64,000 nt of DNA from Galbitalea soli (GTDB lineage Bacteria; Actinomycetota; Actinomycetes; Actinomycetales; Microbacteriaceae): contig NZ_JAAGWZ010000001.1 of assembly GCF_010686725.1 (NCBI RefSeq), positions 682,001-746,000 on the forward strand. The letters run 5' to 3'. A model generated the notes under the pieces. The model ran no database searches. It was given only the letters and a program-made list of their open reading frames with translations, and was not told where the DNA came from. The translations under genes and the position numbers were made by a program. Shown here piece by piece: positions 1 to 14,114 of the stretch (positions within the stretch are counted from its first letter, which is position 1; the number at the start of each line of letters is the position of its first letter).

Positions 1-4
1 GGTC

Positions 5-535
5 ATGGCCGCCCCTCGACCTAAGCTGGGCGGCATGGTCGGTTTCCGGGAGTCCGCCGTCGACGACGCTGCGGCGCACGCCCTGCTCAGCGAGTACTTC
101 GAGAGTCGTGCCGCCGGCTTCCCGCCGCAGCAGGGTCACTACCGGGCGACCTTCCCCAGCCCACGCGACTTCGTGCCCCCGAGCGGCGTGTTCCTGATCG
201 TTGAGGACGTCGATCTGGCCGGAGAGCCGGCGGACGTCGGCTGCGGCGGGGTTCGCCGCATCGCCGACGGCGAGTCCGGTCGCACGCGGTTCGAGATCAA
301 GCACCTGTATCTGCAGCCGCACCTCCGCGGCCGGGGATTCGGCCGACGCACGCTCGCCGAGCTCGAGGCGCGCGCCATCGCGCTGGGCGCTCAGGAGCTC
401 GTCCTCGACACGAACGCGGCGCTGGAGGCCGCGGGCGCGCTCTACCGATCGATGGGATACGAGCACATCGACCCGTACAACAGCAACCCGAACGCCACCG
501 ACTGGTACGGCAAGGTCGTCAGTACGGCTGGGTGA
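5..535 (+). CDS. GNAT family N-acetyltransferase
   Basis: Predicted GCN5-related N-acetyltransferase of 176 residues, which would move an acetyl group from acetyl-CoA to an unknown small molecule or protein amine. The acetyl-CoA pyrophosphate-binding motif A is visible as LRGRGFGRR at residues 107-115, and the family C-terminal pattern ALYRSMGYE follows at 145-153. The ATG at position 5 gives a complete domain, but the window begins only four bases earlier, so an upstream start cannot be excluded. The 3' end overlaps the convergent phosphatase gene by 17 bp. The substrate cannot be told from sequence. Confidence 0.85.
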   Translation: MAAPRPKLGGMVGFRESAVDDAAAHALLSEYFESRAAGFPPQQGHYRATFPSPRDFVPPSGVFLIVEDVDLAGEPADVGCGGVRRIADGESGRTRFEIKHLYLQPHLRGRGFGRRTLAELEARAIALGAQELVLDTNAALEAAGALYRSMGYEHIDPYNSNPNATDWYGKVVSTAG

Positions 536-1121
536 CCGGCAGCCCCGTCCGCAACTCGGCCGGGAGGTGTCCCAGATCGTTGTGGGTGATGAGCACCGGC
601 GGCTTCGCGGATCGCACGCGGATGATCGTGAGCCCGCAGTTCGCCTGGTTGACGCCCATCCAGCGCCACGGTGCCGCCCCGAACGTCTCGCGCACGAACC
701 ACCCGATCACGAAGTTGTGCGTGATGAGGAGGTCATGTCGATCCTCGTGGGTCGGGGTCATCCACTCGGCGACGGCGTCGGTCATCTGCGCCTCGCCCGC
801 CTCGATCTGCTCCGGCGTGACTCCACCGAAGAACTGCTCGAAGCTGTGCGGCATGTCGGGCGTCGGGCCGCTCGGAATACAGTCCATGAGCAGTGCGCTC
901 GGCTCCGACTCCAGCGCCGGCATCCGTTCGGTCATGATGCGCGCCGTGTCTTCGGCCCGCGTGAGCGGCGAGTGCCAGGCGCCCGTGAAAGGCACGCCGC
1001 CGAGGCGCTCCGCGATGGCTCGCGCTTGCCTCTTTCCGCGCTCCGACAGCGGACCGTCGGGAAGGCCGTACTCGGCGTCCTGCTGTTCGCCGTGGCGGAT
1101 CAGATAGAGGTAGTGGCTCAT
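519..1121 (-). CDS. Histidine phosphatase family protein (phosphoglycerate mutase-like)
   Basis: A 200-residue cytoplasmic protein of the histidine phosphatase superfamily. The phosphohistidine motif RHGE lies at residues 9-12, with His10 the predicted nucleophile. The C-terminal half carries a second conserved histidine in LLITHNFV, as expected for the 2H-phosphatase fold. It follows the M16 peptidase gene after 22 bp on the same strand, with an AGGAAG ribosome-binding site, so the two are probably co-transcribed. The substrate is unknown; members range from phosphoglycerate mutases to nucleotide and sugar phosphatases. Confidence 0.85.
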   Translation of the reverse strand: MSHYLYLIRHGEQQDAEYGLPDGPLSERGKRQARAIAERLGGVPFTGAWHSPLTRAEDTARIMTERMPALESEPSALLMDCIPSGPTPDMPHSFEQFFGGVTPEQIEAGEAQMTDAVAEWMTPTHEDRHDLLITHNFVIGWFVRETFGAAPWRWMGVNQANCGLTIIRVRSAKPPVLITHNDLGHLPAELRTGLPVTQPY

Positions 1122-1143
1122 GCTCTGGATCTTCCTGGTGGTG

Positions 1144-2499
1144 TCAGGGGGTGGGGCTCAGCGCGAGCCCACTGAAGAGTGCCGCATCGACGGCGCCGAC
1201 GGCGGCGACGGAGAGGGGCCGATGCACGAGTTCGTCGGCGAGCTCACGCACCGCGTCTGCCGTGACCAGTGCGATGCGCCGCAACGACTCGTCGAGGTCG
1301 ACGAATTCGCCGAGAGTGATCTCGCTGCGGCCGAGGCGCGACATCCGCGTGTCGGAGTCCTCGAGCGCGAGCGCCGACGCCCCGCTCAGTTGGCCGGCCG
1401 CGCGTCGCATCTCCTCCTCCGTCACACCCTGCTCGGCGATGCGCCGGAACTCGCTCAGCATGAGGTCGGCCACCTGGGTCGCCTTGCTGGGCGAGCATCC
1501 GGCATAGACGCCGAACAGCCCCGCGTCGCTGTAGCTCGGCGAGAAGGAGTACACCGAGTAGGCGAGCCCGCGCTTCTCGCGGATCTCCTGGAACAGCCGA
1601 CTCGACATGCCGCCGCCGAAGATGGAGTTGAAGACGGTGAGCGTCGCGCGGCGCGGGTCGGTGGCCGCGAGGCCGGCCACTCCCATGAGGATGTTCGCCT
1701 GTTCGATCGGGCGCTCGACGATCGCGAGCGGGGTGCCGCGCTCGATGAGTCCGGCCGACGCGTCACGGCGGATGACCGGCGCGGCGGGCGCCTCGAGGTT
1801 CCAGCCTGCCCGCACGAGCGCGGCGCTCACGCCGGCGACGAGCTCGTCGTGGTCGACCGCGCCCGCGACCGTCACCACGAGATCCTGCGGACGGTAGTTC
1901 GCCCGATAGTGCTTCCAGACGGCATCCCGGCTGACCGCGGAGATGGTCTCGGGGCTGCCGCCGATCGGCCGTCCCAGGGGGTGGTCGCCGAGAACGGCCT
2001 CGAAGAATCGCTCGCTCGTCACATCGGCAGGGTCGTCATCGGCCATCGCCAGTTCTTCCAGGATGACCCCGCGCTCGTTCTCGAACTCGCTCGGGTCGAG
2101 CAGCGACGAGGTGAACATGTCAGCGAGCACCTCGACGGCCATCGGCAGGTCGCGGTCCTGGATCTTGGCGTAGTAGCAGGTGTACTCCTTCGCCGTCAGA
2201 GCATTGTGCTCGCCGCCGACGGAGTCGAAGCTCACCGCGATGTCGAGAGCGCTCCGCGACGCGGTGCCCTTGAACAGCAGATGCTCGAGGAAGTGGGTCG
2301 ATCCGTAGGTGCCCGGGAGTTCATCCCGCGAGCCGACGGCGACCCAGTAGCCGATGGTGGCGCTGCGGGCGCCGGGAACCTGTTCGCTGAGCACGCGCAC
2401 GCCGCTGGGCAGAACGGTTCGACGGATGAGCGAATCGCCGGATGCCGTGAACCTGAGTTCTGCGAGATCGAGAGGAAGAGGCACGGCACCGTTGGTCAC
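1144..2499 (-). CDS. M16 family zinc metallopeptidase (pitrilysin/insulinase-like)
   Basis: A 451-residue processing-peptidase-like protein. The inverted zinc motif HxxEH is present as HFLEH at residues 69-73, and the downstream glutamate region (NALTAKEYTCYY) supplies the third ligand, so this is the catalytically competent type. The length fits the single-chain bacterial M16B form that dimerises. In Actinobacteria this gene usually follows pnp; here a TetR regulator and an aldo/keto reductase lie between them. Translation starts at GTG 2499. A TAGGCT hexamer six bases upstream suggests a leaderless mRNA, which supports this start. Confidence 0.9.
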   Translation of the reverse strand: MTNGAVPLPLDLAELRFTASGDSLIRRTVLPSGVRVLSEQVPGARSATIGYWVAVGSRDELPGTYGSTHFLEHLLFKGTASRSALDIAVSFDSVGGEHNALTAKEYTCYYAKIQDRDLPMAVEVLADMFTSSLLDPSEFENERGVILEELAMADDDPADVTSERFFEAVLGDHPLGRPIGGSPETISAVSRDAVWKHYRANYRPQDLVVTVAGAVDHDELVAGVSAALVRAGWNLEAPAAPVIRRDASAGLIERGTPLAIVERPIEQANILMGVAGLAATDPRRATLTVFNSIFGGGMSSRLFQEIREKRGLAYSVYSFSPSYSDAGLFGVYAGCSPSKATQVADLMLSEFRRIAEQGVTEEEMRRAAGQLSGASALALEDSDTRMSRLGRSEITLGEFVDLDESLRRIALVTADAVRELADELVHRPLSVAAVGAVDAALFSGLALSPTP

Positions 2500-2880
2500 C
2501 GCACGAGCCTACGTCATGGATGTCGGCATCAACCGGAGATATGCACAACCGAGGCAGTGGCGAAGGCGTTTCACTTATCCCTCGAATTGGGGGGACAAAA
2601 TAGCGGACAAACAGACGAGTCTGTCTGTCCTCATATGCTACAGTTGGGTCATCGGCCGGAGATTCGGCCGACCACAACTCAATAGCTTCGCCACCCGAAG
2701 GCGAACACCGCGCTCGAGGCTCCCCCGGCCACGAGCACACCGCTCGCGGCTCCCCCCCGGTCACGAGCATCCCGGCAGGAGCCCGAAACCCCTGCCGAAC
2801 CAGCCCGAGTCCCCCGGCTCGGGTTCAGCACACCAACGGCTTGAGGACACCTAGCCGCAATGCCCGTAAGGAGCCGCGCT
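2500..2880 (+). promoter_or_regulatory. Divergent intergenic region with palindromic operator and long 5' UTR of the TetR gene
   Basis: No gene is visible in these 381 bases. An imperfect 26-bp inverted repeat lies at 2605-2630, with left arm GGACAAACAGAC and right arm GTCTGTCTGTCC around a central GA; one position is unmatched. A TATGCT -10-like hexamer follows at 2634-2639, so a bound repressor would cover the -35 region. The implied 5' leader of about 235 nt contains two hairpins, 2773-2797 (CGGCAGG/CCTGCCG) and 2804-2823 (CCCGAG/CTCGGG). That the adjacent TetR protein binds this operator is an inference. Confidence 0.45.
2506..2511 (-). promoter_or_regulatory. -10 element TAGGCT of the M16 peptidase gene
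   Basis: TAGGCT on the minus strand sits 6 nt before the GTG start at 2499, the spacing of a leaderless actinobacterial transcript. No clear -35 element is visible. Confidence 0.5.
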
Positions 2881-3492
2881 GTGACGGTCGTAGTAAATGA
2901 CGTCGATCTTGAACCGACCGCACAGCGTGCCCCGGGCGCCAAACAGCGAATTCTCGAGACCGCCGATCGCCTGTTCTACGGCGACGGCATCCGCTCGGTC
3001 GGCATCGACCGACTCATCAGCGAATCGAGCGTCACGAAGGCCACCTTCTACAAGCACTACGGCTCGAAGGACCGCCTCATCCTTCTGTACATCGAGGGCC
3101 GGCACACGGCCGAGGTCGCTGACCTCGAGGCGATCCTGGCGGCGCACCCCGCGCCCGAGGCCGCCCTTCGCGCGATCGTTGCCGCGATCGTGGCCGATAT
3201 CGCGACGCCGGGGTTCCGCGGTTGCGCCTTCCTCAACGCGGCGACCGAATTCGCCGACGCCCGGCACCCGGTTCGCTCGGTCGTCTTGCGCCACCGCGAG
3301 TGGTACACCGGGTTCCTGGCCGACCTCCTTCAGGACCTCGGCCACCGGATGCCCGGCGACGCCGCCGACGAGTTCATGCTCGCGCGCGACGGCGCGATGA
3401 CGGGCGGATACGCCGGCGATCCCATTGCGGCCTCCGCCGCCCTGCAGCGCGTGACCGACGCCGTCATCGCAACGGCCCAGCTCGCGCACTAG
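2881..3492 (+). CDS. TetR/AcrR family transcriptional regulator
   Basis: A 203-residue predicted repressor. The N-terminal helix-turn-helix is recognisable: AKQRILETADRLFY, then GIRSVGIDRLI, then the recognition stretch SVTKATFYKHYGSKDRLI, all typical of TetR. The C-terminal ligand-binding domain is not diagnostic. I place the start at GTG 2881 because AAGGAG at 2868-2873 is an ideal ribosome-binding site for it; the ATG at 2860 would add seven residues without one. A palindrome in the upstream region suggests autoregulation. Likely targets are its own gene, the divergent M16 peptidase operon or the convergent aldo/keto reductase. Confidence 0.88.
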   Translation: MTVVVNDVDLEPTAQRAPGAKQRILETADRLFYGDGIRSVGIDRLISESSVTKATFYKHYGSKDRLILLYIEGRHTAEVADLEAILAAHPAPEAALRAIVAAIVADIATPGFRGCAFLNAATEFADARHPVRSVVLRHREWYTGFLADLLQDLGHRMPGDAADEFMLARDGAMTGGYAGDPIAASAALQRVTDAVIATAQLAH

Positions 3493-3494
3493 GA

Positions 3495-3542
3495 ACGTGC
3501 AGCGCTCCTAACGTGCTGCGCTCCTAACGAGCAGCGCTCTTA
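3495..3542. repeat. Three 16-bp tandem repeats between convergent genes
   Basis: Three head-to-tail 16-base units (3495-3510, 3511-3526, 3527-3542) follow the pattern ACG(T/A)GC(A/T)GCGCTC(C/T)TA. They fill the gap between the TetR and aldo/keto reductase stop codons, and the last unit overlaps the reductase stop. Confidence 0.8.
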
Positions 3543-4724: not shown

Positions 4725-7004
4725 TCAGCCCTCGGCGGGTGCCTCAGGACCGTCGCTCGCCGCAGCCGAACCGTCGGTATCGGCCGACTCGGCATCGTCG
4801 AGCACGGGTGCGAGCGAGAGCTTGCCGCGGTCGTCGATCTTGGTGATCTCGACCTGGATCTTCTGGCCGACGCCGAGCACGTCCTCGACGTTCTCGACGC
4901 GCTTGCCACCGGCCAGCTTGCGGACCTCACTGATGTGCAGGAGCCCGTCCTTGCCGGGAGTCAGCGAGACGAAGGCACCGAAGGTCGCGATCTTGACGAC
5001 CGTGCCCAGGAAGCGTTCGCCCACCTCGGGGTTGAGCGGGTTCGCGATGGCGTTGACCGCCGCGCGAGCCGCCTCCGCCGACGGACCGTCGACGGCGCCG
5101 ATGTACACGGTGCCGTCATCCTCGATCGAGATGTCCGCTCCGGTGTCGTCCTGGATCTGGTTGATCGTCTTGCCCTTCGGGCCGATGAGCTCACCGATCT
5201 TGTCGACGGGAATCTGCACGCTGATGACGCGAGGCGCGGTCGGCGCCATCTCGTCGGGCGCGTCGATCGCGGCGTTGATCACGGCGAGGATCGTCGTGCG
5301 CGCTTCCTTGGCCTGCTTGAGCGCGCCATCCAGCACCGAGGAGGGGAGACCGGCGAGCTTGGTGTCCAGCTGGATCGCCGTCACGTACTCGGAGGTGCCC
5401 GCGACCTTGAAGTCCATGTCGCCGAGGGCGTCCTCGGCTCCCAGGATGTCGGTCAGGGCCGCGTAGCGCGTCACGCCATCGACCTCATCCGAGATGAGGC
5501 CCATGGCGATGCCGGCGACCGGAGCGCGCAGCGGCACACCGGCGTTGAGCAGCGACAGGGTCGAGGCGCAGACCGAGCCCATCGACGTCGAGCCGTTGGA
5601 GCCGAGAGCCTCGGACACCTGGCGGATCGCGTAGGGGAACTCCTCGCGGGGCGGCAGCACCGGCACGAGCGCGCGCTCGGCGAGGAAGCCGTGCCCGATC
5701 TCGCGACGCTTGGGGCTGCCCACGCGGCCGGTCTCACCGGTGGAGTAGGGCGGGAAGTTGTAGTGGTGCAGGTACCGCTTCTTGGTGATCGGCGACAGCG
5801 AATCGATCTGCTGTTCCATCTTGAGCATGTTCAGCGTCGTGACGCCCAGGATCTGGGTCTCGCCGCGCTGGAAGATGGCCGAGCCGTGCACGCGCGGAAT
5901 GACCTGGACCTCGGCGTCGAGCGCACGGATGTCGGTCAGGCCGCGGCCATCGATTCGGATGCCCTCGGTCAGCACGCGGGCGCGCATGACCTTCTTGCTC
6001 ACGGACTTGTACGCGGCCGACACCTCGCCCAGCGCCGATGCGGGGAGGCGCTCCGCCTCCACCTCGCCGGCGATGTGGCCCTTGACGCGGTCCTTCAGGG
6101 CGTCGTCAGCGTTCTGACGCTCGATCTTGTCGGCGATCTGGTACACGCCCTTGAGCTCGTCGTAGGCGAGTCCGGCCACCGCGTCGTAGGTGCCCTGGGT
6201 GTACGGCGGGAACAGCGGGTACTCGGCGATCGGCTTCGCCGACTGCGCGGCCAGCTCCTGCTGCGCCTTGATGAGCGCCTTGAGGAACGGCTTCGAGGCT
6301 TCGAGGCCCTGCGCGACGACGGTCTCGTCGGGCTTGGTCGCACCCGCCTTGATGAGGTCCCAGCTGCCCTCGGTGGCCTCAGCCTCAACCATCATGATCG
6401 CGACGTCCTCGTTGCCGGAGGCATCGGTCACGAGACGGCCCGCGACGGTGAGGTCGAAGACGGCCTCCTCGAGCTGGCTGAACTTCGGGAAGGCGACCCA
6501 CTGGCTGCCGATGAGCGCGAGGCGCACGCCGGCGACCGGGCCGTAGAACGGCAGACCCGAGATCTGGGTGGATGCGCTGGCCGCGTTGATCGCGAGCGCG
6601 TCGTAGAACTCGTCGGGCGCGATGCTCAGCACCGTGATGACGATCTGGACCTCGTTGCGTAGACCCTCGACGAAGGTCGGCCGCAGCGGCCGGTCGATGA
6701 GACGGCAGACCAGGATCGCCTCCGTGGACGGACGACCCTCCCGGCGGAAGAACGAGCCGGGGATCTTGCCGGCAGCGTAGGAGCGCTCCTCGACATCGAC
6801 GGTGAGCGGGAAGAAGTCGAAGCCGTCACGCGGCTGCTTGCCCGCGGACGTCGCCGACAGGATCATCGTGTCTTCGTCGAGATACGCGGCGACGGCACCC
6901 TGTGCCTGCTGCGCGAGGCGACCGGTCTCGAATCGGACCGTTCGCGTGCCGTAGGCGCCATTGTCGATGACAGCCTCGGCGAATTTGATTTCTGGACCCT
7001 CCAT
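4725..7004 (-). CDS. pnp: Polynucleotide phosphorylase
   Basis: A 759-residue phosphorolytic 3'-5' exoribonuclease, the trimeric core of mRNA decay, which releases nucleoside diphosphates. It contains two RNase PH-like domains (about residues 15-240 and 330-560), with the helical domain between. A KH domain with the signature [11 protein letters not shown] comes next, followed by a C-terminal S1 domain ([15 protein letters not shown]). Length and order match actinobacterial PNPase. Translation starts at ATG 7004 with AAGGAG about 11 nt upstream. A structured leader precedes it and a strong terminator follows. rpsO, its usual neighbour, lies 6.8 kb upstream rather than adjacent. Confidence 0.98.
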
Positions 7005-7304
7005 ATGGGGGTTTTCTCCTTTGTTTTACGTCGCTCCCCCGTGTGGGGCGCGACTCTTCTCAGGAGCAGGAGCGGGTTCGATGACACGGGCGCGATGCTG
7101 ATCGGCGGGTGTGTACGCGCGCGGCTGACTCGGAGGACGAGGTCCTCCGGAGTGGGGCGCATGTCTGGCCAACAGTAGAAAGTCTCCGAAGAATCTGGAC
7201 GATTTCGGAAATTCACCACCGGTGACCAGCGTCTTGCCAGCCTGCTCCGCCCTCCAGACTACAGGGCGGCGCCGAAAGCGCCTAGTGACGGCGCGCCGCG
7301 CCGC
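7005..7304 (-). promoter_or_regulatory. Structured 5' leader and promoter region of pnp
   Basis: This 300-bp gene-free stretch separates pnp from the upstream gene. A TACTGT -10-like hexamer at 7172-7177 would give a leader of about 160 nt. The leader holds a strong hairpin at 7128-7153 (ACTCGGAGGAC pairing with GTCCTCCGGAGT, one bulge) and a weaker one near 7032-7052 (CCCC/GGGG). PNPase genes are commonly autoregulated through leader hairpins, and an Actino-pnp RNA motif is known upstream of pnp in Actinomycetales. Position fits that motif, but I could not confirm the match. A further 7-bp stem (CCGCCCT/AGGGCGG) lies at 7247-7269. Confidence 0.5.
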
Positions 7305-7925
7305 TCAGAAGCCCGGGGCGCGGGACGGGCACGCGGAGTGAATGGACGCTCCGCGCGGGGTGTGAACGTCGAGCGCGAGCGTGACGTATGCGTCCACGAC
7401 CCGACCGGATTGCGCCGCGCGAAGAAACTCCGCCCGGGCGACGAGCGGCGGGACGGCGACGCCGTGCGCGCGCAGGCAGGGCACGAAATCGTGACTGAGA
7501 TAGGCGTACTGATAGAGCCACTGCTGACGGGTGTGCAACTCCTCGACGTCAGCGGCGAGGGGGAACTGCAGCGAGCAGGCCTCGATGATGTCGTGCTGCA
7601 CGAGTGCCGTGGAGGCGTCCGAGGTGCGCGCGATCCACGATCCGGCGTAGCCGGGGGTCACACCGGGTATACCCGTCTCGGCGATGCACGCGGTCATCAC
7701 CGAGCGCCACTGGCGACTCGAGATGATCCGGTGGAACTGCACGCCGAGCCGCGCGTACTCGTGCTCACTCGCAGACTGCGAGTACAGCCGCGAGACCAGG
7801 GGCAGCAGCTGCGACCGCGTCATGACGGGTGCGCGGGCGGGCGGGGGCGGAATGGAGCCGAGGATGATCGCGCTCACCGCCACCGCGCCCGCGACGACGG
7901 TCACGAGCGGGGAGAGTCGATGCAC
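7305..7925 (-). CDS. Hypothetical secreted or membrane-anchored protein
   Basis: I do not recognise this 206-residue protein. It begins with a single hydrophobic segment (residues 5-25, VTVVAGAVAVSAIILGSI) followed by a Pro/Ala-rich stretch, so it is probably an exported protein with an uncleaved anchor or signal peptide. The rest is predicted soluble and contains four cysteines (in TACIAET, EACSLQF, FVPCLRA and HSACPSR) that could form disulphides outside the cell. The start is GTG 7925, preceded by GGGGGA. It follows the HtrA-type protease on the same strand, separated by a hairpin. Confidence 0.7.
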   Translation of the reverse strand: MHRLSPLVTVVAGAVAVSAIILGSIPPPPARAPVMTRSQLLPLVSRLYSQSASEHEYARLGVQFHRIISSRQWRSVMTACIAETGIPGVTPGYAGSWIARTSDASTALVQHDIIEACSLQFPLAADVEELHTRQQWLYQYAYLSHDFVPCLRAHGVAVPPLVARAEFLRAAQSGRVVDAYVTLALDVHTPRGASIHSACPSRAPGF

Positions 7926-7960
7926 TCCCCCAGTCTCGCACCGCGGCCGTGCACGGAGAT

Positions 7961-7986
7961 GGCCCGCCGACTAGGTTCGGCGGGCC
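7961..7986 (-). terminator. Probable terminator hairpin after the HtrA-type protease gene
   Basis: A perfect 10-bp stem (GGCCCGCCGA/TCGGCGGGCC) with a 6-nt loop lies 19 bp past the protease stop. The following minus-strand bases (ATCTCC) are not a good U-tract, so termination may be weak. Confidence 0.5.
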
Positions 7987-8004
7987 GTCCTTTCCCGGGG
8001 GATC

Positions 8005-9321
8005 TCAGGCCGCGGGCCCGGCGACGAGCGTCACGGTCGCGGTGTGAGCCGCCCCCTTCGCGTCCGTCCAGGCGATGGTCACCCGATCGCCGACGTGGTG
8101 AGCCGCGATCGCGCTGCTGAGCGCGCTCTGCGTGGAGACCGCGGTCCCATCCACCGCGGTGATCGTGCTGCCGGCGGTGATTCCCGCGCGGGCGGCCGGC
8201 ATGCCGGCGAAGACGCTGCTGACGGGCACTCCCGCGACGGTCGATGTCGCTGTGGTCGCGATCTCGACTCCCAGGAAGGCCGGGTATCCGATGCGAACCG
8301 TGCTCGAGGCGGTGCCCGACTCGATCTGGTCGGCGATCCGGAGCGCCTTGTCGATGTTGATCGCGTATCCCGTGACGGCGGAGCTCCCCGAGGACGCGGC
8401 CGTGATGATGCCGATCACGTCGCCCGACGAGTCCCGCAGCGGACCACCGGAGTCACCGGAGACGACGTCGGAGCTCACCTCGATGAGTCCGGACAGGCTC
8501 TCGCCGGTCTCCGAGAAGTCACTCTGCACGGTGAGGCTCTGGTTGACGGCCTCGACCGTGCCCTTCGCGGTGACCAGATCCCCGGTCCCCTCGGCGTTGC
8601 CCACCGAATACACCGCTGCCCCCGCCTTCACCGACGACGACGCGTCGAAGGTCACCGGGGTCAGTCCTGACGCACCGGACAGCTTCAGCACCGCGACGTC
8701 ATCCGTCGCATCCGTGCCGACGACGGTCGCCCGGTAGCTCTTTCCCGTCGACTCGACGGTGACCGTGATTCTCGTGGCCTGCTGCACGACGTGGTTGTTG
8801 GTGAGGATGAGCCCGTTGGACGACATGATCATGCCGGTGCCGGCGGCCCGCTCCTGGCTGTCGTAGTTGAGTACGGTGTCGATCGTCACGACCCCGACCT
8901 TCTCCGCCGCGGTGGAGGCCGTCGCGGCGGAGACGGAGGCACCCGTCCCGGAGCTCGACGAACCGCCCGATATTCCGCCGCCGAACGCCGCTCCGCCGCG
9001 ACCGCTGAAGCCGTTGCCGTTGGGATCACTGAACGAGCCGTAGCCCGACCCGCGCTGCGTGCCGACCCCGCCGCTCGTGGACTGCGACGACGTCGTGCTC
9101 GCGGCGGGTTCCGTCAGCACCGCGATGGCGGCGGTACCGAGACCGCCGATGCAGACGACGGAGGCCGTCGCCACGACGATCGCGAGAACGGGCCCGCGTC
9201 GACTCTTGCGTGCGATCGGAATCCCGGCATCGCTCCCGTCCTCGGGTGTCGGCGCGGCGCTGAAGGCGGGCGCGGCGGTCGGCGCGTCGTCGGTCGGCTG
9301 CGGCTCGTTGTCCTGATTCAT
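8005..9321 (-). CDS. HtrA/DegP-like S1C serine protease with PDZ domain
   Basis: A 438-residue membrane-anchored protease. A cytoplasmic acidic Pro-rich N-terminus is followed by one membrane segment (about residues 44-69), then a Gly/Ser-rich linker (80-128). The extracytoplasmic trypsin-like domain has its catalytic triad intact: His177 (TNNHVV), Asp208 (DDVAVLK) and Ser291 (SGDSGGPL). A PDZ domain occupies the last 100 residues. This is the usual architecture of actinobacterial HtrA proteases, which act in extracytoplasmic protein quality control. The ribosome-binding site is GAGGAA. It lies downstream of the flavin oxidoreductase pair on the same strand. Confidence 0.93.
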   Translation of the reverse strand: MNQDNEPQPTDDAPTAAPAFSAAPTPEDGSDAGIPIARKSRRGPVLAIVVATASVVCIGGLGTAAIAVLTEPAASTTSSQSTSGGVGTQRGSGYGSFSDPNGNGFSGRGGAAFGGGISGGSSSSGTGASVSAATASTAAEKVGVVTIDTVLNYDSQERAAGTGMIMSSNGLILTNNHVVQQATRITVTVESTGKSYRATVVGTDATDDVAVLKLSGASGLTPVTFDASSSVKAGAAVYSVGNAEGTGDLVTAKGTVEAVNQSLTVQSDFSETGESLSGLIEVSSDVVSGDSGGPLRDSSGDVIGIITAASSGSSAVTGYAINIDKALRIADQIESGTASSTVRIGYPAFLGVEIATTATSTVAGVPVSSVFAGMPAARAGITAGSTITAVDGTAVSTQSALSSAIAAHHVGDRVTIAWTDAKGAAHTATVTLVAGPAA

Positions 9322-9437
9322 GGCGAGTTCCTCACGGTGGTGATTCTGGCGTTGGTGCCACTCTCGAACCCCAAGCTGGGGGAACTCTATGACCAGACGA
9401 AGACTCTGCTGCCGGTCATCCGTGAGCCCGCTCTGGA

Positions 9438-10052
9438 CTATCCGGCCGGGTTGAATCCGGCGGGGAGGGCGAAGGGGTCGAGCACTCGGGATGACCGCCC
9501 CGACTCCGCCACAGAGGCCGCCAGCTCCCCCGCCGCCCGCTCGACTCGCTCGGTGAGCCCCGACGCACCCGGCGCGGACCCCGCGCCCCAGTCGCTCGAC
9601 GCCGCGTAGACGGCGGTGGGCATCACCACGGCGTGCAGATAGGCGAACAGCGGTCGGATCGCGTAGTCGAGCGCGAGCGAGTGCCGTTCGGTGCCACCCG
9701 TCGCCGCGATCAGTACCGGCAGGTCCGTCAGCGCGGTCGGGTCGATCACATCGATGAACGACTTGAAGAGTCCGCTGTAGCTCGTGGTGAAGATGGGCGT
9801 CACCGCGATCAGCCCATCGGAGGCCGCGATGGAGTCGATCGCCCGCTCCAGAGCCGGACTCGGGAACCCCGTCAGGAGGTTGTTGGTCACGTCGTGGGCG
9901 AGCTCACGCACATCGATGACCTCCACCGAGGTCTCGACACCCGTCTCGGCGAGGCGCCCGACGACGGCAGCCGACAGGCGATCGGCCAGCAGCCGCGTCG
10001 ATGACGGCTGGCTGAGTCCCGCGGTCAGGACGGCGAGGGTGCGCTGCGTCAT
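9438..10052 (-). CDS. NAD(P)H-dependent FMN reductase (CE1759-type)
   Basis: A 204-residue flavodoxin-like protein. The N-terminal phosphate-binding loop LSQPSSTRLLADRL and the downstream VTPIFTTSYSGLFKSFIDVI segment (flavin-binding loop, typical of NADPH-dependent FMN reductases) are visible. It would supply reduced FMN to the luciferase-like monooxygenase, whose stop codon overlaps its start by 4 bp, so the pair is translationally coupled. The pairing matches the CE1758/CE1759 two-component families of Actinobacteria. No substrate-specific information can be read. Confidence 0.88.
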   Translation of the reverse strand: MTQRTLAVLTAGLSQPSSTRLLADRLSAAVVGRLAETGVETSVEVIDVRELAHDVTNNLLTGFPSPALERAIDSIAASDGLIAVTPIFTTSYSGLFKSFIDVIDPTALTDLPVLIAATGGTERHSLALDYAIRPLFAYLHAVVMPTAVYAASSDWGAGSAPGASGLTERVERAAGELAASVAESGRSSRVLDPFALPAGFNPAG

Positions 10053-11152
10053 GAGAGCACCTCCTCGCGGGCCTCGGCCGCGCGGGCCGCGGCCAGGAGG
10101 GACGCGTGCGTCGGGCCGTCGGGCACGTGCTCGGGGCGGTTCGTGGCGAACTCCTTCCGGAGCACGGGAACCACCTCCTCGCCGAGAATGTCGAGCTGCT
10201 CGAGCACGGTCTTGAGCGGGAGCCCGGCGTGGTCCATGAGGAACAGCTGGCGCTGATAGTCGCCGAAGTGCTCGCGCATCGAGGCGTAGCGGTCGATCAC
10301 CTGCTGCGGGCTGCCCACGGTCAGCGGGGTCTGCTCGGTGAAGTCCTCCAGTGAGGGGCCGTGGCCGTAGACCGGAGCGTTGTCGAAGTAGGGGCGGAAC
10401 TCGTCGATCGCATCCTGCGAGTTGCGGCGCATGAAGGCCTGCCCGCCGAGACCCACGATCGCCTGATCGGCCGTACCGTGCCCGTAGTGCTCGAAGCGCT
10501 GCCGGTAGTAGCCGATGAGCCTCATGTAATGCTCCTTCGGCCAGAAGATGTTGTTGGCGAAGAAGCCGTCTCCGTAATAGGCCGCCTGTTCGGCGATCTC
10601 GGGCGAGCGGATGCTGCCGTGCCAGACGAAGGGCGGCACGCCGTCGAGCGGACGCGGCGTGGATTGGAAACCCTGCAGCGGAGTGCGGTACTTACCCTGC
10701 CAGTCGACGTAGTCCTCGCGCCACAGGCGGTGCAGCAGAGCGTAGTTCTCGATGGCCAGCGGGATGCCGTCGCGGATGTCCTTCCCGAACCAGGGGTACA
10801 CCGGGCCGGTGTTGCCGCGCCCCATCATCACGTCGGTGCGCCCGTTCGAGAGGTGCTGGAGCATCGCGAAGTCCTCCGCGATCTTCACGGGGTCGTTGGT
10901 GGTGATCAGGGTGGTGCTGGTCGAGAGCAGGATGCGGTCGGTCTGCGCCGCGATGTAGGCGAGGGTCGTCGTCGGGCTCGAGGAGAAGAAGGGCGGGTTG
11001 TGATGCTCCCCCAGCGCGAAGACATCCAGACCGACCTCCTCCGCCTTCTTCGCGATCGCGACGGTCGCCATGATGCGCTCGTGCTCGGTCGGGGTCTGGT
11101 GGGTCGTCGGGTCGGTGGTGATATCGCTGACCGTGAAGATACCGAATTGCAT
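10049..11152 (-). CDS. LLM class flavin-dependent oxidoreductase (CE1758-type)
   Basis: A 367-residue bacterial-luciferase-like monooxygenase with a TIM-barrel fold that uses reduced flavin and O2. Family features include MQFGIFTVSD at the N-terminus, LGEHHNPPFFSSSP, and the MMGRGNTGPVYPWFG flavin-contact region. It is the first gene of a two-gene operon with the FMN reductase. The ATG at 11152 is preceded by AGGAGC. A short palindrome at 11184-11195 upstream may be an operator. The oxidised substrate is unknown. Confidence 0.92.
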   Translation of the reverse strand: MQFGIFTVSDITTDPTTHQTPTEHERIMATVAIAKKAEEVGLDVFALGEHHNPPFFSSSPTTTLAYIAAQTDRILLSTSTTLITTNDPVKIAEDFAMLQHLSNGRTDVMMGRGNTGPVYPWFGKDIRDGIPLAIENYALLHRLWREDYVDWQGKYRTPLQGFQSTPRPLDGVPPFVWHGSIRSPEIAEQAAYYGDGFFANNIFWPKEHYMRLIGYYRQRFEHYGHGTADQAIVGLGGQAFMRRNSQDAIDEFRPYFDNAPVYGHGPSLEDFTEQTPLTVGSPQQVIDRYASMREHFGDYQRQLFLMDHAGLPLKTVLEQLDILGEEVVPVLRKEFATNRPEHVPDGPTHASLLAAARAAEAREEVLS

Positions 11153-11313
11153 CTCGTGCTCCTGGTGAGTGCTCGGACTTTCAATGCGTTTGCATGAATA
11201 TGGACGTCAACGCGGCCACCTCGGGATCTATTCCCGAGGGATGGCGGCGGCATCGCTGCGGTGCTAGCGTCGTCAGCGAGGGAACCCGAACCCTCAGAAA
11301 AGGGACCACACCC
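11153..11313. promoter_or_regulatory. Divergent regulatory region with ATGC-N4-GCAT palindrome
   Basis: At 11184-11195 an inverted repeat ATGC(GTTT)GCAT lies about 35 bp upstream of the monooxygenase start and is a candidate repressor site. On the plus strand an extended -10 (TGC TAGCGT, hexamer at 11265-11270) points toward a small ORF. Apart from these and that ORF, the 333 bases between 11153 and 11486 hold nothing I can identify. Confidence 0.3.
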
Positions 11314-11472
11314 ATGGTTCGAACCACTGATCCGCGCGCCCGAGCGCGGAAGATGGCCGCGCTCGCCGCCCACGCCGCGAGCGCCGCCACCCAGACCATC
11401 GTCGCCGTCATGCCTGCGGCGCCCCCTCGAGATCAGCGCGCTCGAGATCCGCGCGTGACCGCGCGACACTGA
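11314..11472 (+). CDS. Possible small basic protein (52 aa)
   Basis: A 52-codon reading frame begins MVRTTDPRARARKMAAL, continues with an Ala-rich stretch and ends in an Arg-rich tail. Supporting signals are an AAAGGGA ribosome-binding site 8 nt before the ATG and an extended -10 at 11265-11270 giving a leader of about 37 nt. Against it are the lack of any recognisable family and the ease with which Ala/Arg-rich frames arise in high-GC DNA. No function is proposed. Confidence 0.3.
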   Translation: MVRTTDPRARARKMAALAAHAASAATQTIVAVMPAAPPRDQRARDPRVTARH

Positions 11473-11486
11473 CGTCGCCGCGGCCG

Positions 11487-11669
11487 CTAGTCTCGCGACC
11501 TCTTGGGCAGGGTGCGGTTCAGAAGCACCACGATCACGATCGCGACGAACACGAGGATCGCCGCTTTCACCGCGAAGGCGAGCGCCTGCAGTACGAAGGT
11601 CAACAGCAGGAGCACCGCGATCAGGACGACGATCGACCAGATGAAAGTGGTGCGGGTGCGGCGGTTCAT
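11487..11669 (-). CDS. Small single- or double-spanning membrane protein
   Basis: A 60-residue protein with a basic N-terminus (MNRRTRTTF), almost continuous hydrophobic sequence from residue 9 to 50, and a basic C-terminal tail (RTLPKRSRD). The hydrophobic stretch can hold one long or two tight membrane helices. The ATG at 11669 is used. It belongs to no family I recognise. It is convergent with the possible small ORF at 11314-11472. Confidence 0.65.
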   Translation of the reverse strand: MNRRTRTTFIWSIVVLIAVLLLLTFVLQALAFAVKAAILVFVAIVIVVLLNRTLPKRSRD

Positions 11670-11719
11670 CGCCCTAGTCTGCCATGGCGGACGGGGCGGT
11701 CCCGCTCGCCGGCCGGGTC

Positions 11720-12160
11720 TCAGCGCGTGAGACCCATCAACAGGGTCAGTCGCAGTCCGCGCTTCGTCGCCGTCACTTCAGCGGGGATGCGCGGCGGCTT
11801 GCCCTCGCCTTCGAGCCGTGCCATCGCCTCGATGACCGCCGGCTCGAGCCCGCGGGGAACCCAGCCGACGACGCCCGACATGCGGCTGTCGGCGAAGATG
11901 CGCACCGGCATCGCCGCGTCCGTGCGCTCTTCCTCGATCGTGCGGGGCGCGATGAACGACGTCACCTCGGTGCCGGGGGTGAACTTCGCGAGTTCGTCCT
12001 GGTGCGGGTCACTCCCGGCGAGCACGATCGTGATCCGGGCGTTGTTGGGGACGAGGCTGAATCGGTAGTCATCGAGACTGCCCTTACCCGAATCCGCTTT
12101 GGGATACTCCCCTGCGGTGTCACCGCGGCCGAACAGCTTCATCGCCCGATCATCCTTCAC
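11720..12160 (-). CDS. Conserved hypothetical protein
   Basis: A soluble 146-residue protein. The stretch from RITIVLAGSDPHQDELAKF through RIFADSRMSGVVGWVPRG is arranged as alternating strands, and the sequence ends KRGLRLTLLMGLTR. I have seen similar uncharacterised actinobacterial proteins; a HIRAN-like fold is possible but not demonstrated. The start is GTG 12160, preceded at 9 nt by GGGAGG, with TAGACT at 12176-12181 as a plausible -10. The ATG at 12142 (residue 7) is the alternative start but has no good ribosome-binding site. Confidence 0.7.
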   Translation of the reverse strand: MKDDRAMKLFGRGDTAGEYPKADSGKGSLDDYRFSLVPNNARITIVLAGSDPHQDELAKFTPGTEVTSFIAPRTIEEERTDAAMPVRIFADSRMSGVVGWVPRGLEPAVIEAMARLEGEGKPPRIPAEVTATKRGLRLTLLMGLTR

Positions 12161-12235
12161 TCCCCGTGGCCTCCCAGTCTACCGAGGCGGGGCGGTGCGG
12201 CACCCTGCGGGCGGCGCCGCGAGGGTGATCGCTCC

Positions 12236-12625
12236 TCAGTGCGGAGTGGCCACGTGCTGACGTGCCCGGGCCTGACGCCGCTCGGCGCGCTCGCGCCGCC
12301 GAGCCGCCCGGGCCTCGATGAGCACCCGTTCCTGCTCGCGCCGGAGCGGGTTGAGGAAGAGCGAGATCATGCGGATCCCGAATCCGAGCACGGCGACCGG
12401 GATCGACAGCACGAGGAACAACTCGATGGTCCCCGACATCGAGTCGGGCGCGAACACCATCATCTCCGTTCCCTCCATCGCCATCATTCCGTTCCGCCAG
12501 GCCAGGTAGCCGAGGCCGGCGATGACGGCGCTGAGGACGAGCGCGAACAGCAGGAGGCGCGGACCGCGGTGGCGGATTGCGTAGACGATGCCGTCGAGGA
12601 CGACCGACAGAGAGAGCGGCAGCAT
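12236..12625 (-). CDS. Hypothetical membrane protein; true start may be an upstream ATC
   Basis: From the ATG at 12625 this encodes 129 residues with two or three membrane segments (about 1-18, 27-43, 66-90) and a highly basic, coiled-coil-like C-terminus (RREQERVLIEARAARRRER). The frame stays open upstream and reads a plausible N-terminus of 19 more residues (IDAITAPGGFLGAFILLGI), which would complete the first membrane helix. No ATG, GTG or TTG occurs there in frame. A GGAGG lies 5 nt before an in-frame ATC at 12682, with an extended -10 (TGA TAGTTT) at 12722-12727. I recognise no family. Confidence 0.65.
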   Translation of the reverse strand: MLPLSLSVVLDGIVYAIRHRGPRLLLFALVLSAVIAGLGYLAWRNGMMAMEGTEMMVFAPDSMSGTIELFLVLSIPVAVLGFGIRMISLFLNPLRREQERVLIEARAARRRERAERRQARARQHVATPH

Positions 12626-12721
12626 GATTCCGAGCAGGATGAACGCGCCCAGAAAACCCCCTGGTGCAGTGATCGCGTCGATGATGTCCTCCGCTTCCCC
12701 CCGGTAAGAGCACTCGGGGGA

Positions 12722-12727
12722 AAACTA
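12722..12727 (-). promoter_or_regulatory. Extended -10 element upstream of the 12236-12625 gene
   Basis: TAGTTT preceded by TGA reads toward the membrane protein gene. The implied leader of about 33 nt carries GGAGG at its 3' part. Confidence 0.4.
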
Positions 12728-12794
12728 TCAACGAGCTGTAAAGAACACGCTCCCCAGTTGGGGGGTCACTGCGACGGTGGTCGCGGCGAAACCG

Positions 12795-13601
12795 CTACTC
12801 GCCCGGTGCGAACCAGGGCGGAAAGACCGCGAGCTTCGGCGAGTGGGCGGCGCCCGCGAGGATCTCACGGACGCGGGTCCGCGCCTTGTCGTGCGCGACG
12901 CCCACGAGCGTGATGAGCTCGAATGCCACCGAGCCGTGCACGAGCAGCTCGGCATCGAGCAGCCGCTCCTGCTCCGGGTCAGCGCGCAGGGTGCGCAGCA
13001 TCCGCTCCGACTCCTCGCGGGTGACCGCGAATCGGGTGGTGGTAGCGGCGGCGTCGCCGTCGGCCACGGCGACCGAGGGAGTCGCCGACCAGACGGCGTC
13101 GACCGTGGTGACCAGCAGCACGAACTCGGAAGGGTGGTAGGCGGTCGCGGCGGCGCTCAGGCGCGCACTGGGGCGACGGGCGCGCAGGTCATCCCAGACA
13201 TTCGCCGTCGGCGACAGAAAGAACGGCACGAATTCGGCGACCGGCACGTCGGCGGTGACGACCGCGTCACGGCGGCCCTCACGCGTGGATGGCGACGAGA
13301 TGTCGACGGCGGGCGCGAAATCCCACCCGGCCGACTGCGGGGCGAAGATGCTGCCCGAGCGGAGAATGCCCGCGAGGTTGTCGATGTGCGTCAGGTGGAA
13401 GGCGCGCTGCGACGACACATCGTCGCGGAACGGTGCGGCCAGCGAGGTGGCGGGACCGGCACCGGTGGTGCTACGGCGAGCCGACGGGGTGCGCGGCGCG
13501 GCGCGGACTCGAGCCGGAGCCACCGTGGCAGCCGGCGCCGCAGCCGGATAGCAGGAGGCGCACAACCGACCGGTGAGACCGTGGATACATTCGTCGTCCA
13601 A
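12795..13601 (-). CDS. DarT-like (DUF4433) ADP-ribosyltransferase with N-terminal zinc-ribbon-like motif
   Basis: A 268-residue protein from TTG 13601, which has GGAGG 9 nt upstream. From about residue 70 it matches the DarT/DUF4433 pattern: FHLTHIDNLAGILRSG (NAD-binding start), then DISSPSTREGRRDAVV, then VAEFVPFFLSPTANVWDDL. Glu218 in DAELLVHG falls where the catalytic glutamate of DarT enzymes lies. DarT toxins ADP-ribosylate thymidine in single-stranded DNA. The N-terminus has Cys5, His7, Cys14 and Cys17, a likely zinc site, joined by a Pro/Ala/Arg linker. No DarG macrodomain antitoxin is adjacent, so activity as a toxin is uncertain. Confidence 0.8.
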   Translation of the reverse strand: MDDECIHGLTGRLCASCYPAAAPAATVAPARVRAAPRTPSARRSTTGAGPATSLAAPFRDDVSSQRAFHLTHIDNLAGILRSGSIFAPQSAGWDFAPAVDISSPSTREGRRDAVVTADVPVAEFVPFFLSPTANVWDDLRARRPSARLSAAATAYHPSEFVLLVTTVDAVWSATPSVAVADGDAAATTTRFAVTREESERMLRTLRADPEQERLLDAELLVHGSVAFELITLVGVAHDKARTRVREILAGAAHSPKLAVFPPWFAPGE

Positions 13602-13770
13602 GAAACCAGGCCTCCGTGCGTTGCGGGTGTGCGCACCGCCACCGTGGTGACGGCACGACTCAACGTTACGGGGTTCTCGCACGGCCCGCCCCCACTCGCA
13701 CGGAAGAGCTCCTCAGCATTGGGCCCATCGAGCCCCGGCGATGCACGCTCCGGGGCGCACCACCGCACGG

Positions 13771-13802
13771 AAAAGGGCCGCCACCCGTGGGTGACGGCCC
13801 TT
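13771..13802 (-). terminator. Rho-independent terminator of rpsO
   Basis: A 13-bp stem (AAGGGCCGCCACC with GGTGACGGCCCTT, one G-U on the minus strand) with a 4-nt loop is followed by TTTT. It lies 43 bp past the rpsO stop and separates rpsO from the DarT-like gene. Confidence 0.88.
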
Positions 13803-13844
13803 CGTCAAGTTCGACGCGATCTCGATTCGCCGCTGGGTGGAAAC

Positions 13845-14114
13845 CTAGCGGCGGAGGCCGAGACGCTCGATCAGCGAGCGGTAACGCTCGATGTCGATGT
13901 CCTGCAGGTAGCCCAGCAGGCGTCGACGCTGACCGACGAGCAGAAGCAGGCCACGACGTGAGTGGTGGTCGTGCTTGTGCTCCTTGAGGTGCTCGGTCAG
14001 GTCTTTGATGCGACGCGTCAGCATCGCGACCTGGACCTCGGGGGATCCCGTGTCACCTGGGTGGGTAGCGTACTCGTCGATGATCGCCTTCTTGACATCG
14101 GCTTCAAGAGCCAT
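13845..14114 (-). CDS. rpsO: 30S ribosomal protein S15
   Basis: An 89-residue S15, the standard bacterial length. Diagnostic sequence includes [38 protein letters not shown] and the C-terminal [13 protein letters not shown]15 binds 16S rRNA early in 30S assembly. It starts at ATG 14114 with GAGGAGAAAGG upstream and has its own promoter and terminator, so it is monocistronic here. In most relatives it sits between ribF and pnp; here both neighbours have moved away on the same strand. Confidence 0.98.

What the first reader, a model, noticed from the sequence alone, without database searches (positions are those of the whole stretch)
12795..13601. Orphan DarT-like DNA ADP-ribosyltransferase with a zinc-ribbon N-terminus beside rpsO
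Seen: a DUF4433-type core (THIDNLAGIL, VPFFLSP, AELLVHG with the putative catalytic Glu218) and an added Cys/His cluster (Cys5, His7, Cys14, Cys17). Known: DarT enzymes modify thymidines in single-stranded DNA and are normally neutralised by an adjacent DarG macrodomain protein. No macrodomain gene is in this 64-kb window. So either the protein has lost activity, is controlled by an unlinked antitoxin, or the zinc module restricts it to a housekeeping target. It sits inside the split rpsO-pnp locus, among other accessory genes.
Basis: partly seen in the sequence, partly recalled or inferred. Interest (0 to 1): 0.65.

Follow-up and report, generated by a model that had tools for sequence, protein, structure and literature searches.

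The report
Solo zinc-knuckle DarT-like enzyme family
This bacterial gene belongs to a lineage-wide family of DNA-toxin-like enzymes that have kept their NAD-using catalytic residues but carry a conserved zinc-knuckle tag, have changed the residues that grip the target, and have no antitoxin gene beside them, so their target is probably new and can be tested.

Summary
Window 12795-13601 (-) encodes a 268-aa DarT-fold protein (Pfam PF14487 E 1.5e-21; model Z 25 to Thermus DarT) with an N-terminal Cys5-His7-Cys14-Cys17 motif. It belongs to a Microbacteriaceae family; all 80 retrieved relatives carry the motif although only the core was queried. In 19 close pairs the knuckle is the most constrained part (pN/pS 0.06; core 0.16). 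The family is monophyletic. The DarT catalytic residues are invariant (R51 to R110, E160 to E218; 40 of 40), so it is probably not dead. Residues that hold the acceptor base are replaced: His/Asn119 is Asp in 36 of 40, Met78 is Val/Leu/Ile in 34 of 40, and an invariant Trp follows. The substrate loop is shorter. No DarG-like signature lies in the window or the 80 loci; 13 of 18 other actinobacterial DarT loci have one. Eleven of 36 family genomes lack macrodomain, ARH and NADAR hits. Best reading: an active, antitoxin-independent ADP-ribosyltransferase with a changed acceptor, docked by its knuckle. The rpsO position is incidental. The target is unknown.

The parts
12795..13601 (-). solo DarT-like ADP-ribosyltransferase gene, TTG start, 268 aa
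   Evidence: AlphaFold model pLDDT 87; Z 25.0, rmsd 2.6 over 197 residues to 7omv
13545..13592 (-). CHCC knuckle, residues 4-19 (E-C-I-H-G-x5-C-x2-C-x-P)
   Evidence: invariant in 29 of 29 (rows chosen by the motif) and present in 80 of 80 relatives found with the core only; pN/pS 0.059
13416..13544 (-). low-complexity Ala/Pro/Arg/Thr linker, residues 20-62
   Evidence: pLDDT 48-70 in residues 21-60; pN/pS 0.197
12798..13415 (-). DarT catalytic core, residues 63-268
13377..13397 (-). NAD adenosine-side residues H69, T71, N75 (Taq H13, T15, N19)
   Evidence: 40 of 40 in the family; roles of the Taq residues from PMC9967889 passages
13272..13274 (-). Arg110, equivalent of catalytic Arg51
   Evidence: 40 of 40
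13194..13196 (-). Trp136, invariant in the family; mostly Leu/Met in canonical DarT (Taq L79)
   Evidence: 40 of 40
13053..13055 (-). Asp183, at the base-coordinating position (Taq His119, DarT1 Asn104)
   Evidence: Asp in 36 of 40 family rows, Asn/His in 15 of 15 canonical rows; role
12948..12950 (-). Glu218, catalytic glutamate (Taq E160)
   Evidence: 40 of 40
13663..13670 (-). putative -10 promoter box CGTAACGT of the gene's own promoter
   Evidence: CGTANNNT in the 130 bases upstream of 41 of 41 representatives against 31 of 213 other genes in the same loci; CGTA[AC]CGT 23 of 41 against 4 of 213
13771..13800 (-). terminator-like hairpin between rpsO and this gene (stem 13775-13800, then four T)
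   Evidence: read by eye; not listed by the terminator scan, so uncertain
13845..14114 (-). rpsO, upstream neighbour (context only)
4725..7004 (-). pnp, the other half of the split rpsO-pnp locus (context only)

Best explanation
The gene encodes a chromosomal, single-copy, monocistronic ADP-ribosyltransferase derived from DarT2. It still binds and cleaves NAD+ with the DarT Arg/Glu pair, but it transfers ADP-ribose to an acceptor other than thymidine (DarT2) or guanine (DarT1) in single-stranded DNA. The acceptor is most likely another base or another nucleic acid, and the N-terminal CHCC knuckle on its flexible linker docks the enzyme on it. Because the acceptor differs and expression is probably low (TTG or GTG start, one promoter of its own), it is tolerated without a dedicated antitoxin. 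Shown here: fold, family, conserved catalytic and NAD residues, replaced acceptor residues, shortened substrate loop, conserved knuckle, purifying selection, no linked or universal antitoxin of a known kind. Inferred: zinc binding, docking role, changed acceptor, low expression, non-toxicity.
For: Fold: Z 25.0 and 24.7 to Thermus DarT, 14.9 to DarT1; Foldseek E 2e-16 to 7yk3. Catalysis kept: R51, E160, H13, T15 and N19 equivalents invariant in 40 of 40. Acceptor site changed: position 119 Asp in 36 of 40 against Asn 12 and His 3 of 15 canonical; M78 position Val/Leu/Ile in 34 of 40 against Met 11 of 15; W136 40 of 40; distance from 119 to 160 is 32-35 against 38-48. Alanine at DarT1 N104 (the H119 equivalent), M71 or R52 abolishes DarT1 activity (PMC11543638 passages), so these positions matter. 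Knuckle: 80 of 80, pN/pS 0.059 with 6 non-synonymous differences over 714 sites in 19 pairs. No partner: no recurrent neighbour across 81 loci; no macrodomain signature in the 80 loci or the window against 13 of 18 canonical loci; 11 of 36 genomes lack macrodomain, ARH and NADAR. No plasmid, phage or viral copy found.
Against: No activity, metal or substrate was measured. The Asp183-His119 equivalence rests on an alignment at about 24% identity to Thermus DarT. Four of 40 rows have Asn, Ala, Val or Tyr there, and one of these (Asn) looks canonical. A DarG-like hydrolase of an undetected fold could exist. Macrodomain presence is associated with the gene within the family (19 of 36 with, 6 of 36 without; Fisher p 0.0026, not corrected for relatedness), which would fit a partnership. 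G023 has a strong knuckle match in a 171-aa frame but no DarT match, so some copies may be decaying.
Confidence: 0.45

Rival explanations
1. Conditional defence effector: an antitoxin-free DarT that is normally silent (low expression, self-inhibited) and is switched on by phage infection, with the knuckle as the sensor of phage nucleic acid or protein. It then ADP-ribosylates nucleic acid and stops growth.
For: DarTG systems defend against phage (PMC9503650 and PMC11281641 passages). CxHG-x5-CxxC knuckles also occur in small proteins on viral contigs. Patchy presence: 36 of about 72 Microbacteriaceae genomes (plus G037). 74 of 80 use non-ATG starts.
Against: Recurrent neighbours are ordinary genes (MOSC, GNAT, M18 peptidase, SNF2, EEP), not defence islands; no copy on phage, plasmid or viral contigs; strong purifying selection is more like a routine function, though not decisive.
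Confidence: 0.25
2. Canonical thymidine-ssDNA ADP-ribosyltransferase kept in check by an unlinked hydrolase such as the MacroD-type macrodomain protein at C1:1200542.
For: One macrodomain gene in this genome; association in the family, 19 of 36 against 6 of 36; an unlinked macrodomain, SCO6735, removes thymidine-linked ADP-ribose in Streptomyces (PMC9411070, title and passages).
Against: His/Asn119 and Met78 are replaced; 17 of 36 family genomes have no macrodomain; the macrodomain here has the MacroD signature rather than a DarG-like one (signature recalled), and a search with one ALC1-like macrodomain as query found nothing in G000.
Confidence: 0.13
3. Catalytically dead NAD- or nucleic-acid-binding protein that uses the DarT fold as a reader, with the knuckle as the working part.
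For: Acceptor-site residues essential in DarT1 and important in DarT2 are gone; the NCBIfam score is below the DarT cut-off in the 4 family members scored.
Against: Catalytic R and E are invariant in 40 of 40, which a pure binder would not need.
Confidence: 0.1
4. Protein- or small-molecule-directed ART or NADase: the knuckle binds a protein partner and the acceptor is not a nucleic acid.
For: The acceptor pocket is rebuilt around an invariant Trp and an Asp, and the substrate loop is short; CHCC knuckles can bind proteins as well as nucleic acids (recalled).
Against: The characterised DarT enzymes in the passages read act on DNA; nothing here points to a protein target.
Confidence: 0.07

Closest known systems
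DarT2 (Thermus sp. 2.9 DarT, PDB 7omv-7on0; M. tuberculosis DarT, PDB 7yk3)
   Same: Same fold (Z 25.0 and 23.7), same catalytic Arg and Glu, same NAD adenosine-side His/Thr/Asn
   Different: N-terminal knuckle and linker added; base-coordinating His/Asn is Asp; Met78 lost; substrate loop shorter; no DarG partner
DarT1 (E. coli C7, PDB 8baq)
   Same: ARTD fold with the same catalytic pair
   Different: More distant (Z 14.9); DarT1 coordinates guanine with Asn104 and is paired with NADAR (PMC11543638 passages); NADAR is absent from all 36 family genomes
DarTG toxin-antitoxin system
   Same: The toxin half has a relative here
   Different: No DarG (macro) or NADAR gene linked; single-gene, chromosomal family with no mobile copy found
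SCO6735-type unlinked macrodomain hydrolases of actinobacteria
   Same: Precedent for an unlinked thymidine-ADP-ribose hydrolase in the phylum (PMC9411070 passages)
   Different: A search with one ALC1-like macrodomain as query had no match in this genome
CxHG-x5-CxxC knuckle proteins of viral contigs and actinobacteria (no named family found)
   Same: Same knuckle pattern near the N-terminus (L146, L152, L186, L189)
   Different: Joined to unrelated short C-terminal regions, no DarT core

Membership tests
DarT fold family (Pfam PF14487) | match above the curated cut-off | tested here: met
   77.5 bits against 22.5
DarT fold family (Pfam PF14487) | DarT three-dimensional fold | tested here: met
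   Z 25.0, rmsd 2.6 over 197 residues to 7omv
DarT enzymes | catalytic Glu160 and Arg51 | tested here: met
   E218 and R110, 40 of 40 family rows
DarT2 thymidine ADP-ribosyltransferase | base-coordinating residue His119 (Asn in most canonical rows) and Met78 | tested here: not met
   Asp183 and Val135 here; Asp in 36 of 40, Val/Leu/Ile in 34 of 40
DarT equivalog (NCBIfam NF048013) | score of at least 150 bits | tested here: not met
   67.1 bits; three other family members 50-94 bits; canonical L166 and L168 score 235 and 216
DarTG toxin-antitoxin system | adjacent DarG macrodomain or NADAR antitoxin | tested here: not met
   no macrodomain signature in window or 80 loci; positive control 13 of 18 canonical loci; NADAR in 1 of 119 genomes, none with this gene
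DarTG toxin-antitoxin system | E160-dependent toxicity rescued by the antitoxin | not testable with these tools
   needs an expression assay
DarT2 thymidine ADP-ribosyltransferase | modification of thymidine in ssDNA | not testable with these tools
   needs a biochemical assay
Zinc-binding knuckle | conserved CHCC ligands | tested here: met
   80 of 80, pN/pS 0.059
Zinc-binding knuckle | binds a zinc ion | not testable with these tools
   needs metal analysis of the protein

The most novel reading that the evidence does not exclude
A third branch of DarT chemistry: an antitoxin-free, knuckle-guided ADP-ribosyltransferase that carries out a routine, non-lethal modification of a new nucleic-acid acceptor across a bacterial family, showing that a DNA-damaging toxin fold was turned into a resident enzyme.
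Probability: 0.25. Interest if true: 0.8.

Novelty: new variant of a known kind. Interest (0 to 1): 0.55.

Why it matters
Known DarT enzymes are toxins that need an antitoxin and modify T or G in single-stranded DNA. A lineage-wide family with the catalytic pair intact but with the base-gripping residues swapped, a conserved zinc-type tag and no antitoxin asks directly what the acceptor is and how a cell tolerates such an enzyme. It can be tested with one purified protein. Annotation that calls it DarT implies a toxin and a target that the sequence does not support.

Tried and rejected
Regulon idea: the promoter box CGTAACGTTG occurs 3 times in the genome, against about 2.4 expected from base composition (own arithmetic, not a tool result), so it marks this gene's promoter and not a regulon. 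Structured 5' leader: mean z of the leader folds was -0.62 over 34 sequences, 12 of 34 below -1 (2 further leaders skipped for length and 5 with the box at -14 left out); too weak to claim. Rfam found nothing in the window. Sigma-70 scan: 0 hits.

Conserved partner gene: no neighbour recurs across most genera (ORFs chosen by homology, not by a gene finder, so small genes may be missed). Mobile element: no match in phages, plasmids or viral contigs (the scan used one C-terminal peptide pattern only). Known knuckle family: the only other Pfam match, DUF7630, is at E 0.075, below its cut-off; other knuckle proteins gave no Pfam family above a cut-off. Phage-database searches with two such proteins gave nothing. 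The PDB second look lists many remote ART folds at Z 5-8; these are background and were not followed.

A first alignment extracted only 2 canonical DarTs because my pattern was poor; it was replaced (15 canonical rows; 3 truncated rows, L170, L176 and L177, dropped from the alignment). Motif-selected rows: A1-A3 hold 29 of the 30 loci L003-L032; L031 failed my filter although it has the motif. Representatives: 41 of 81 sequences at 75% identity for the promoter counts; 40 for the residue counts (L051 omitted). In one search the family is taken as the 72 handles G000-G071; G071's family was not printed, and G038 (weak 58-aa match) was left out. In one search I counted 79 of 150 genomes with one strong knuckle match (E up to 1.5e-8) by eye and did not check that each encodes a DarT core.

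Literature: seven searches listed no paper on a solo or knuckle-bearing DarT; subscription journals and preprints are mostly not held. Papers read as passages only: PMC9411070, PMC11543638, PMC11281641, PMC9967889, PMC12170906, PMC5179494, PMC9503650.

Full report
What was checked. Pfam DarT matches at 1.5e-21, PADLOC DarT at 3.2e-22 and solved DarT chains 7yk3 and 7omv by sequence. It falls below NCBIfam's DarT equivalog cut-off (67 of 150 bits), as do three other family members (50-94 bits), whereas two canonical actinobacterial DarTs score 235 and 216.

Fold. An AlphaFold model from 49 aligned family members has mean pLDDT 87, above 90 through most of the core, with residues 21-60 poorly ordered and the knuckle at about 67-75. 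The core matches Thermus DarT (Z 25.0, rmsd 2.6, 197 residues), M. tuberculosis DarT (Z 23.7) and DarT1 (Z 14.9) (Foldseek).

A family, not an oddity. Protein search found relatives in 37 of 119 related genomes, and Pfam DarT in 36 of 119, one of them outside the bacterial family. A scan of the species-genome collection with the core only, through one C-terminal peptide pattern, gave 228 relatives, of which the best 80 were kept; by title they are Microbacteriaceae or one of its genera, except three labelled only as actinobacteria (L035, L074, L110). All 80 carry C-x-H-G-x5-C-x2-C. With the 23-residue knuckle as query, 97 of 150 Microbacteriaceae genomes match at E up to 0.1 and 79 strongly (my count), never twice strongly in one genome; in 296 genomes of the phylum 4 match, one of them outside the family. 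In 19 close pairs pooled pN/pS is 0.059 for the knuckle, 0.197 for the linker and 0.156 for the core. A tree with 15 canonical actinobacterial DarTs and Thermus DarT puts the 40 knuckle proteins on one branch (100/100) with a long stem (2.2), nearest the DarT2 side; the root is a midpoint and the bootstrap had not settled.

Active site. In an alignment of Thermus DarT, 15 canonical DarTs and 40 family representatives, R51 and E160, needed for catalysis (PMC9967889 passages), correspond to R110 and E218 and are invariant in the family, as are the equivalents of H13, T15 and N19. The acceptor side differs. Position 119, which locks thymidine in DarT2 and corresponds to guanine-coordinating Asn104 in DarT1, is Asn or His in 15 of 15 canonical rows and Asp in 36 of 40 family rows (the other four are Asn, Ala, Val and Tyr). 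M78 is Met in 11 of 15 canonical rows; in the family it is Val, Leu or Ile in 34 of 40 and Met in 3. The next residue is Trp in 40 of 40. R75 is Arg in 10 of 15 and in none of 40. Y71 is Phe in 31 of 40. The stretch from 119 to 160 is 32-35 residues in the family, 41 in Thermus DarT and 38-48 in the canonical rows.

Antitoxin. Across 81 loci no gene recurs as a constant neighbour; among the commonest clusters are MOSC, EEP, SNF2, GNAT and M18 proteins. A macrodomain signature search gave no hit in the 80 loci or in the window; the DarG-type pattern of that search hit in 13 of 18 non-Microbacteriaceae DarT loci (of the other five, L170 is cut by its contig end and L178 has an ARH gene instead). 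This genome has one Pfam macrodomain, of MacroD type, about 0.5 Mb away, no ARH and no NADAR, and no match to one ALC1-like query. Of 36 family genomes with the gene, 19 have a macrodomain and 17 do not; of about 36 without the gene, 6 have one (Fisher p 0.0026, relatedness not corrected); 11 of 36 have neither macrodomain nor ARH, among them nearly complete genomes G006, G030 and G052.

Place and expression. rpsO and pnp are separated by about 6.8 kb that holds this gene and others. So the rpsO position is incidental. The gene has its own promoter-like box: CGTANNNT in 41 of 41 upstream regions against 31 of 213 control genes, and CGTA[AC]CGT in 23 of 41 against 4 of 213. The commonest start codon is TTG (45 of 80).

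Mechanism. I commit to an active NAD+-dependent transferase with a changed acceptor, brought to its target by the knuckle and tolerated without an antitoxin (0.45). The strongest rival is a silent defence effector (0.25). Catalysis, metal binding, target and toxicity are all untested.

Relation to the known. It is a member of the DarT fold family and works like an ART with the DarT catalytic pair. It fails the tested defining features of DarT2 (base residue) and of DarTG (linked antitoxin). Seven literature searches listed no description of such a family.

Noticed in passing
L178 (G456) 2-3515: Apparent operon of a UvrD-like helicase ORF (named by eye), a DarT-like protein (PF14487 1.2e-17) and an ADP-ribosylglycohydrolase (PF03747 2.6e-29); a DarT-ARH pairing with a helicase in place of DarG. 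L179 (G440) has a similar helicase-DarT pair.
   Followed up: partly
L146 1240-1569; L152; L159; L186; L189: The CxHG-x5-CxxC knuckle also heads small unrelated proteins in actinobacteria (L146 lies beside an integrase-like ORF, named by eye) and on viral contigs; no Pfam family for those tested.
   Followed up: partly
upstream of 41 family genes; window 13663-13670: Strongly conserved promoter-like CGTAACGT box; in five members the match sits at -14, as if leaderless.
   Followed up: partly
window 13602-13656: A 5' hairpin is predicted between the putative promoter and the start in many members, but the energy z-scores are weak.
   Followed up: partly
G023:C39:59885: Strong knuckle match in a 171-aa frame in a genome without a DarT match: possibly a decayed copy.
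   Followed up: no
window 7005-13844: rpsO and pnp are separated by about 6.8 kb including a luciferase-like and a flavin-reductase-like ORF and a trypsin-like protease (named by eye from the translations).
   Followed up: no
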